Below the pieces are notes generated by a model. The model did no database searches and had not been told where the DNA came from. It was given only the letters and a program-made list of their open reading frames with translations. A stretch of DNA of 64,000 nucleotides from Porphyromonas cangingivalis (GTDB lineage: Bacteria; Bacteroidota; Bacteroidia; Bacteroidales; Paludibacteraceae). Positions 335-1,752 of this stretch are shown piece after piece (the first letter of the stretch is position 1; every line of letters begins with the position of its first letter). Position numbers and translations under genes: made by a program. The stretch is from NCBI GenBank assembly GCA_945902955.1, contig CAMDNO010000003.1:1-64000 (forward strand). The letters are read 5' to 3'.

Positions 335-503
335 TGGATAAATTTTGTGATAATAATTACAGAGTTTTAAATGGCAGGGTTGCACATTCTTTATTTCGAA
401 ATTTCAAGCCACAAAGTTAACAATATTGTGCATTATTCAATCCTCATAAAGGTATGAAAAATTCACTAATTTCATTCAAAGCCTTTCGGGGTAAGGTGAT
501 ATG

Positions 504-678
504 AAAAACTGCGAAGCAGTTGAATGTCCTTAGCCATGTACGAAGGATGTGATGAAAGATAAATCAGGAGGGGTAATAATAGAAAACGCCCCCCAAGTAT
601 GCTGCCCATAAGGCAAGCCTGGGAGGCTTATTATCATTGAGTTGGATAACTTGCGAGTAGAATGTTTTACCGAAACGG
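504..678 (-). ncRNA. Candidate structured ncRNA just downstream of, and on the same strand as, the AbiF-like gene
   Basis: Minus-strand promoter TTTG-N20-TACTTTTG (683-714); hairpins ACCG-TTT-CGGT, AAGCC-TCCCA-GGCTT (615-629), TGCC..GGCA, GGGG..CCCC, TCCTT..AAGGA; ends in AACTGC-TTC-GCAGTT-TTT. GC content is clearly above the flanks and there is no convincing ORF. Confidence 0.6.
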
Positions 679-682
679 TGTG

Positions 683-714
683 CAAAAGTAACTCATTATT
701 CGCATATATGCAAA
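683..714 (-). promoter_or_regulatory. Bacteroidetes-type promoter for the candidate ncRNA (-33 TTTG at 711-714, -7 TACTTTTG at 683-690)
   Basis: Matches the TTTG / TAnnTTTG consensus with a 20 nt spacer. Confidence 0.55.
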
Positions 715-745
715 CAATAGAGCATGTATTTTTTTGTATATTTAT

Positions 746-1702
746 TTATTTCCATATATTTTCTTCTTTCCAGTTAGTAGGGAAGCCCATAAATCCGGTA
801 TTTACCACGTGTTTATATTCGTCAAACAGGGCAATTAATCGGGTTTTGAAACTCGAATGGGGATTAGCTGTTTGCAGCAGATAATTTATCATGCATACAA
901 AATAATACATTTTTGAACGCTGAACAGTGTCAGGGTTCGATATCCAGACCTTGGTTTTCGAAAAGCCAAGTTTCATGGGTACGATGTTCATATCTCTGTT
1001 CCATAACCGTGCGTGATGTGCACAAATATTGCGCACATAATTTACAGAATGCAGCCACGACGAGAAGGTTTCGGGTGGTAAACCAAACCATTTTGCTATG
1101 GCGGCAATATCGCTTCGTTCTTTCAGATTATTGCATATTTGCGATAAGTGATTGAAATACATAATTTCAACACTCATCCACGAAGGTGGATTTGTAGGCG
1201 TATCGTATTTTTGTGCGTAATGTTGAATAAAAACTTCGGCTTTGTTGCTAACAAGTTGTTCTTTAATGTGCTTCTGAATGTCCTTAAAAACATCAATTGT
1301 TACTTCAGCACCATCTTTCCTTATATGCGTATGAACTTTAAATATATCTTTGTTGTCCTGCCAGTGTGAACCATATTTATGACTAAGTTGATAAATTATT
1401 TGAGAACGAATAGCAATTTCCAAACGTTCAATAGCATCGAAAATCAACAGTCGTAATTTTCGATCAAAAACATATAAATCGTAGATATGATACCAGCTTG
1501 TGTTCGGTTTAAAATCATCAGTACGAACACCATCAACCCATTGTTTGTATGGCAGCATATACGCACTCATTCTGTAATAACTTATACCCGAAAGATGTCT
1601 TTTGGTTCTTTCGTTGTTCTCTATAAGCAAACCTCTGCTTTTTAATAAATCAACTTGCTCCTGATAGTTTTTAGGGGGTTTTGTATATTCACATTTAGCC
1701 AT
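746..1702 (-). CDS. Abi_2 / AbiD-AbiF family abortive infection protein, HEPN-like
   Basis: N-terminus KPPKNYQEQVDLLKSRGLLIENNERTKRHLSGISYYRMSAYMLPYKQ is typical of Abi_2; RNICAH matches the HEPN RX4-6H motif. Confidence 0.88.
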   Translation of the reverse strand: MAKCEYTKPPKNYQEQVDLLKSRGLLIENNERTKRHLSGISYYRMSAYMLPYKQWVDGVRTDDFKPNTSWYHIYDLYVFDRKLRLLIFDAIERLEIAIRSQIIYQLSHKYGSHWQDNKDIFKVHTHIRKDGAEVTIDVFKDIQKHIKEQLVSNKAEVFIQHYAQKYDTPTNPPSWMSVEIMYFNHLSQICNNLKERSDIAAIAKWFGLPPETFSSWLHSVNYVRNICAHHARLWNRDMNIVPMKLGFSKTKVWISNPDTVQRSKMYYFVCMINYLLQTANPHSSFKTRLIALFDEYKHVVNTGFMGFPTNWKEENIWK

Positions 1703-1744
1703 AACTATTCGTGTACCGTTTTTTTTTTATTTTTATTTGTTCTG

Positions 1745-1752
1745 CAAATATA
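1745..1752 (-). promoter_or_regulatory. -7 element TATATTTG upstream of the Abi gene
   Basis: TAnnTTTG consensus about 40 nt before the start codon; no clear -33 element. Confidence 0.4.

What the first reader, a model, noticed from the sequence alone, without database searches (positions are those of the whole stretch)
504..1752. AbiF-like HEPN protein followed by an independently promoted, terminated structured RNA
Seen: an Abi_2 protein with RNICAH (HEPN RX4-6H). Starting about 30 bp past its stop, on the same strand, are a near-consensus Bacteroidetes promoter (TTTG-N20-TACTTTTG), about 175 nt of hairpin-rich sequence with no convincing ORF, and an intrinsic terminator (AACTGC-TTC-GCAGTT-TTT). 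Established: a structured RNA motif associated with abiF genes has been described, and AbiF-type HEPN proteins with ncRNA antitoxins have been linked to Cas13 evolution; I recall this from memory and cannot confirm the motif's usual position or structure. Inference: this is a complete HEPN toxin / ncRNA antitoxin pair, possibly with a divergent RNA.
Basis: partly seen in the sequence, partly recalled or inferred. Interest (0 to 1): 0.85.

Follow-up and report, generated by a model that had tools for sequence, protein, structure and literature searches.

The report
AbiF toxin with relocated antitoxin RNA
This is a bacterial self-poisoning defence gene (an AbiF-type RNA-cutting toxin) followed by its own small structured RNA that most likely neutralises it; the RNA has moved from the usual place in front of the toxin gene to behind it, with its own promoter, and the public RNA family model misses it.

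Summary
Window 746-1702(-) is an intact 318-aa Abi_2/AbiF protein with RNICAH (residues 224-229). Its model matches PDB 8vz6 (PbAbiF bound to ncRNA; TM 0.79/0.85), and R224/H229 align with PbAbiF R210/H215. Just downstream on the same strand are a Bacteroidetes promoter, a structured RNA (conserved core 637-578) and a weak terminator. The core is conserved beside 20 of 21 relatives at 53-68% identity, with compensatory changes at four pairs. All 18 loci examined have TAnnTTTG between stop codon and core (1.1 expected). Rfam's abiF model (RF03085) misses the window RNA, but intermediates connect them: my model hits upstream RNAs L067 (56 bits) and L038 (34 bits), and RF03085 hits L038 (39 bits; gathering score 37). 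Outside this clade the RNA lies upstream of abiF, as RCd22 does. The tree needs one switch to downstream (100/99); the sister loci are still upstream. So this is a Bacteroidota variant of the known AbiF/abiF-RNA (type III-like) toxin-antitoxin system, in which the RNA has become its own gene and leader-type read-through control is not possible. Two genomes with no detected Abi_2 keep strong RNA copies. Expression, toxicity and neutralisation are untested here.

The parts
746..1702 (-). abiF-like gene, 318 aa, Abi_2/HEPN RNase toxin (predicted)
   Evidence: Pfam Abi_2 1.5e-53; PDB 8vz6 by sequence and fold
1016..1033 (-). codons of RNICAH (residues 224-229), predicted HEPN catalytic R-x4-H
   Evidence: aligned with R210/H215 of PbAbiF; invariant R, N, C, A, H apart from I/L in clade
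1745..1752 (-). TATATTTG, -7-like element of a promoter for the toxin gene (weak -33)
   Evidence: sequence; most clade members have one in the same place
683..714 (-). RNA promoter: TTTG (714-711), N20, TACTTTTG (690-683)
   Evidence: TAnnTTTG between stop and core in 18/18 loci, 1.1 expected
638..677 (-). RNA leader (approximate start), moderately conserved, not hypervariable
578..637 (-). conserved RNA core (model R1 match, 76.5 bits)
588..627 (-). P1 627-619 with 596-588; P2a 618-617 with 602-601; P2b 614-612 with 606-604
   Evidence: RNAalifold consensus and pair counts
504..521 (-). weak intrinsic terminator AACTGC-TTC-GCAGTT-TTT

Best explanation
A type III-like toxin-antitoxin module of the AbiF kind. 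The HEPN homodimer is an RNase toxin using R224/H229. A short RNA with a basal stem, a 3' internal bulge and an apical hairpin binds the protein and blocks cleavage. In this Bacteroidota clade the antitoxin RNA no longer lies in the toxin's leader: it is a separate gene 40-110 nt past the toxin stop codon, with its own promoter and often its own terminator. The RNA would be made from its own promoter, and because no terminator separates toxin and RNA, toxin mRNA would also carry the RNA at its 3' end. Attenuation of toxin mRNA by a terminated leader, as described for RCd22, is not possible in this layout, so neutralisation should act in trans through the RNA-protein complex. A drop in RNA supply, for example when a phage shuts down or degrades host transcripts, would free the toxin and arrest the cell. 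Shown here: protein family and fold, RNA conservation and structure, position, promoter, single change of position. Inferred: expression, RNA-protein binding, RNase toxicity, neutralisation, trigger.
For: Abi_2 1.5e-53; sequence and fold match to PbAbiF-ncRNA 8vz6. RNA beside 20 of 21 relatives at 53-68% identity; the exception, L020, has a truncated toxin match. In 393 genomes of the order the four strongest RNA hits (E<1e-15) and the four toxins of at least 55% identity are the same four loci. Compensatory changes at four pairs; 13 double-change cells against 4.3 in shuffles. Promoter 18/18; no terminator between toxin and RNA 18/18. Link to RF03085 through L067 and L038. One change of position on the tree, clade 100/99. 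Known function of relatives: RCd22 neutralises AbiFCd by direct binding (PMC12373285); AbiFr inhibits PbAbiF (PMC12737573).
Against: No transcript, toxicity or binding data for this clade. RF03085 does not recognise the window RNA even at E=10, and a model of upstream RNAs scores it only 18 bits, E=0.15. Some clade loci lack an obvious terminator. Eight of 14 pairs never vary. In the tree 'upstream' was the default label; the RNA was located in most but not all of those loci.
Confidence: 0.82

Rival explanations
1. The structured segment is only a 3' UTR element of abiF mRNA (terminator, stabiliser or processing site) and acts in cis, not as a separate antitoxin RNA.
For: It follows the stop codon on the same strand with no terminator between.
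Against: Own promoter in 18/18 loci; in relatives the homologous RNA lies before the gene; strong copies occur in genomes without detected Abi_2; the known homologue acts in trans (PMC12373285).
Confidence: 0.07
2. The RNA is a guide or activator for the HEPN nuclease, Cas13-like, rather than an inhibitor.
For: AbiF is the proposed ancestor of Cas13 (PMC12737573).
Against: No spacer-like hypervariable part: leaders of close relatives (L001/L002, L003/L005) are nearly alike; the nearest characterised RNAs inhibit.
Confidence: 0.05
3. The locus is in decay: a remnant RNA beside a no longer functional gene.
For: Some relatives are broken (L017 in-frame stop, L020 truncated, L097) and orphan RNAs exist.
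Against: The window ORF is full length with catalytic residues; RNA pairs are all intact and the promoter near consensus.
Confidence: 0.05

Closest known systems
RCd22-AbiFCd of Clostridioides difficile prophages (PMC12373285)
   Same: Abi_2 protein with RNxCAH; same-strand structured RNA with the Rfam abiF motif (37.6 bits in phage phiC2); window protein 29% identical over 97%.
   Different: RCd22 lies upstream, shares the toxin's promoter and terminates before it (read-through), and carries two motifs. Here there is one motif, downstream, with its own promoter and a different apical hairpin.
PbAbiF-AbiFr, PDB 8vz6 (Zilberzwige-Tal et al. 2025, read only through PMC12373285 and PMC12737573)
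   Same: Fold TM 0.79/0.85, 33% identity; catalytic R and H aligned.
   Different: PbAbiF groups with L060, L084 and L081, which carry canonical RF03085 RNAs upstream.
Rfam RF03085 abiF RNA
   Same: Architecture P1, 3' internal loop, P2, loop; connected through L038 and L067.
   Different: Window clade has a longer P1, an extra apical stem where the canonical loop is single-stranded, a conserved GATAATAA before P1, and is not matched by the Rfam model.
ToxIN and other classical type III toxin-antitoxin systems
   Same: RNase toxin neutralised by direct RNA binding (inferred here).
   Different: HEPN instead of ToxN fold, no repeat array, RNA downstream; comparison from general knowledge.

Membership tests
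AbiF/AbiD (Abi_2) HEPN toxins | Abi_2 domain over the Pfam cut-off | tested here: met
   182.3 bits, cut-off 25.6
AbiF/AbiD (Abi_2) HEPN toxins | HEPN R-x4-H motif at the position of the known catalytic pair | tested here: met
   R224/H229 align with R210/H215 of PbAbiF
AbiF/AbiD (Abi_2) HEPN toxins | AbiF fold | tested here: met
   only significant PDB fold match is 8vz6, E=9.9e-18
AbiF/AbiD (Abi_2) HEPN toxins | RNase toxicity | not testable with these tools
   needs an assay
Rfam RF03085 abiF RNA | score over the gathering threshold (37 bits) | tested here: not met
   no match in window 500-700 at E<=10; the same tool finds the family in L087, L060, L059, L038, L062
Rfam RF03085 abiF RNA | common descent and stem/bulge architecture | tested here: met
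   by intermediates: R1 hits L067 56.3 and L038 34.3 bits; RF03085 hits L038 39.1 bits
AbiF/abiF-RNA toxin-antitoxin systems | conserved RNA linked to abiF on the same strand | tested here: met
   20 of 21 clade relatives; 4/4 reciprocal in 393 genomes
AbiF/abiF-RNA toxin-antitoxin systems | RNA upstream, in a shared attenuated transcript (as in RCd22; a feature of the described example rather than a strict requirement) | tested here: not met
   RNA downstream with own promoter, clade-wide
AbiF/abiF-RNA toxin-antitoxin systems | RNA binds and neutralises the toxin | not testable with these tools
   inferred from RCd22 and AbiFr

The most novel reading that the evidence does not exclude
In this clade the AbiF antitoxin RNA became a free-standing gene, so control works purely in trans and through the 3' end of the toxin mRNA instead of read-through of a leader; once autonomous, the RNA also persists without its toxin (L116, L118), where it could protect the host against incoming AbiF elements.
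Probability: 0.4. Interest if true: 0.62.

Novelty: new variant of a known kind. Interest (0 to 1): 0.5.

Why it matters
AbiF/abiF-RNA pairs are the proposed ancestors of RNA-guided Cas13, so how the RNA is encoded relative to the protein bears on how a leader RNA could become an independent RNA gene. This clade offers a natural experiment: one change from leader to separate downstream gene, with sister loci still in the old layout and sharing the RNA type. It makes testable whether read-through attenuation is needed for such systems. It also shows a blind spot: the Rfam abiF model misses this RNA, so abiF loci of gut Bacteroidales would look as if they lacked an antitoxin.

Tried and rejected
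Rfam on the whole window, on 1-2500 and on 500-700 gave no abiF match; the low SscA, CRISPR-DR43 and snoR639 matches are chance. A 60-genome RF03085 scan found nothing, but its controls were silent too, so it is uninformative. I first took genome-search loci to be re-oriented and thought some relatives had an antisense downstream RNA; printing gene-oriented flanks corrected this. IMG/VR scans failed twice. A small protein in place of the RNA was rejected: longest frames differ between loci and the core varies by single bases. A guide role was judged unlikely because the leader is not hypervariable. R2's automatic structure kept only six pairs because MAFFT misaligned P1, so R2 was used to locate RNAs, not as structural evidence. 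The sigma-70 promoter scan does not suit Bacteroidota. NCBIfam had no model for the protein.

Full report
What is there. The minus strand of window 746-1702 encodes a 318-aa Abi_2 protein (Pfam 1.5e-53; PADLOC AbiD) with RNICAH at 224-229. By sequence its only real PDB relative is 8vz6 (2e-51); an AlphaFold model (pLDDT 86) finds the same entry, 'PbAbiF dimer bound to ncRNA', as its only significant fold match, TM 0.79/0.85. R224/H229 align with PbAbiF R210/H215, whose double mutant is reported inactive (PMC12373285).

The RNA. About 32 bp past the stop codon come TTTG-N20-TACTTTTG, a leader, a structured core and AACTGC-TTC-GCAGTT-TTT. In relatives at 53-68% protein identity the surrounding DNA diverges but a block GATAATAAGCC...CAGCATACTTG...GCGTT persists. 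It lies 42-111 nt after the stop codon in the 18 loci examined, and TAnnTTTG lies between stop and core in all 18 against 1.1 expected in shuffles. The one relative without the RNA, L020, has a truncated toxin match.

Structure. Fourteen distinct cores give a consensus of P1 (9 pairs), P2a (2) and P2b (3). All 196 cells are standard pairs; four pairs have changes on both sides, 13 cells are double changes against 4.3 in shuffles, and sliding the partner destroys this. Relatedness inflates such counts and eight pairs never vary, so this is support, not proof. No ORF is conserved and the core varies in length by single bases.

Specificity. A covariance model (R1) of the core, run on 393 genomes of the order, gave four hits at E<1e-15, all directly downstream of the four toxins of at least 55% identity in those genomes. 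In 105 genomes of the family of one of them it found that locus again, one further pair (G856), and two strong hits in genomes with no detected Abi_2: G868 (76.9 bits, 97% complete) and G803 (66.6 bits, 75% complete, so absence there is less sure).

Relation to the known abiF RNA. Rfam RF03085 does not detect the window RNA at E up to 10. It does detect upstream RNAs of distant relatives: L087, L060, L059, L081, L084 and L082 at 50-60 bits, L038 at 39.1, and C. difficile phage phiC2 at 37.6. R1 in turn finds the upstream RNA of L067 at 56.3 bits and of L038 at 34.3. L067 carries the apical hairpin and GATAATA start of the window type but in front of the gene. The window RNA is therefore a divergent member of the same lineage; this is an inference through intermediates.

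Change of position. Outside the clade a model of upstream RNAs (R2) located an RNA in about 50 of 57 loci, upstream of the gene; L064 has a further one downstream. A maximum-likelihood tree of 79 proteins puts the 20 downstream-RNA rows in one clade (100/99), with L067, L038 and L068, all RNA-upstream, as sister (100/98); the label needs one change. Rows outside the clade were labelled upstream by default, and for a few (for example L033) no RNA was located.

Mechanism. In C. difficile, RCd22 and the toxin share a promoter, most transcripts end before the toxin, and the RNA also neutralises the protein in trans by direct binding (PMC12373285). Each PbAbiF monomer binds one AbiFr, and C32 and U38 in a single-stranded bulge are said to inhibit the RNase (PMC12737573). 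In the window clade most toxin genes have their own TAnnTTTG, the RNA has its own, and no terminator lies between them in 18/18 loci. Leader attenuation is not possible in this layout, leaving neutralisation in trans plus a toxin mRNA that carries the RNA at its 3' end. The clade's invariant C601 and U595 have the six-base spacing of C32 and U38, but I could not see the PbAbiFr sequence, so that is only a lead. That loss of the RNA during infection frees the toxin is inferred from toxin-antitoxin systems in general.

Context. In the window the gene follows a phage-type amidase, in line with the reported placement of some abiF genes beside lysis modules (PMC12373285). In several relatives the module lies next to type I restriction genes (L011, L067, L038, L068, L078, L085), and abiF-less RNAs occupy similar slots (L116, L094).

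Verdict. A known kind of toxin with a conserved, relocated and autonomous antitoxin RNA that the public model misses: a new variant of a known kind. Function is inferred from characterised relatives and was not tested.

Noticed in passing
L116:1501-1558, L118:1501-1559, L119:1501-1534, L094:1396-1452: abiF-type RNAs without abiF: L116 between a DUF1828/DUF1829 gene and hsdS, L118 alone, L119 at a contig end, and two tandem RNAs in L094 between hsdS and hsdR; no Abi_2 detected in those genomes.
   Followed up: partly
L011, L038, L067, L068, L078, L085: AbiF/RNA modules lie next to or between type I restriction genes hsdS/hsdR, a recurrent niche.
   Followed up: partly
L014:2540-2700 and L014:3955-4110: A direct repeat of about 150 bp containing the RNA flanks abiF; the upstream copy has lost its promoter and 5' stem. 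It shows how the RNA could change sides.
   Followed up: partly
L068 and L085, upstream of abiF: Two different abiF-type RNA motifs in tandem before one toxin gene, like the two motifs of RCd22.
   Followed up: no
window:3261-7195 (-): A 636-aa protein with a weak PIN match (E=0.12) beside a 652-aa GHKL ATPase (HATPase_c_3, phrog_6203): possible two-gene defence unit.
   Followed up: no
window:560-595 (-): The G-run of P1 could also pair with ACCCCTCC just downstream; L014 has a similar CCCTCC. An alternative fold, or chance.
   Followed up: no
L004 and L007-L010, toxin leader: Between the toxin promoter and ATG there are hairpins including GCCACTTCAAGAAGTGGC followed by T-rich sequence, possibly a separate attenuator.
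   Followed up: no
G000:C76:11012-11761: A second, distant Abi_2 gene (28% identity) in the same genome with no abiF-type RNA recognised nearby.
   Followed up: no
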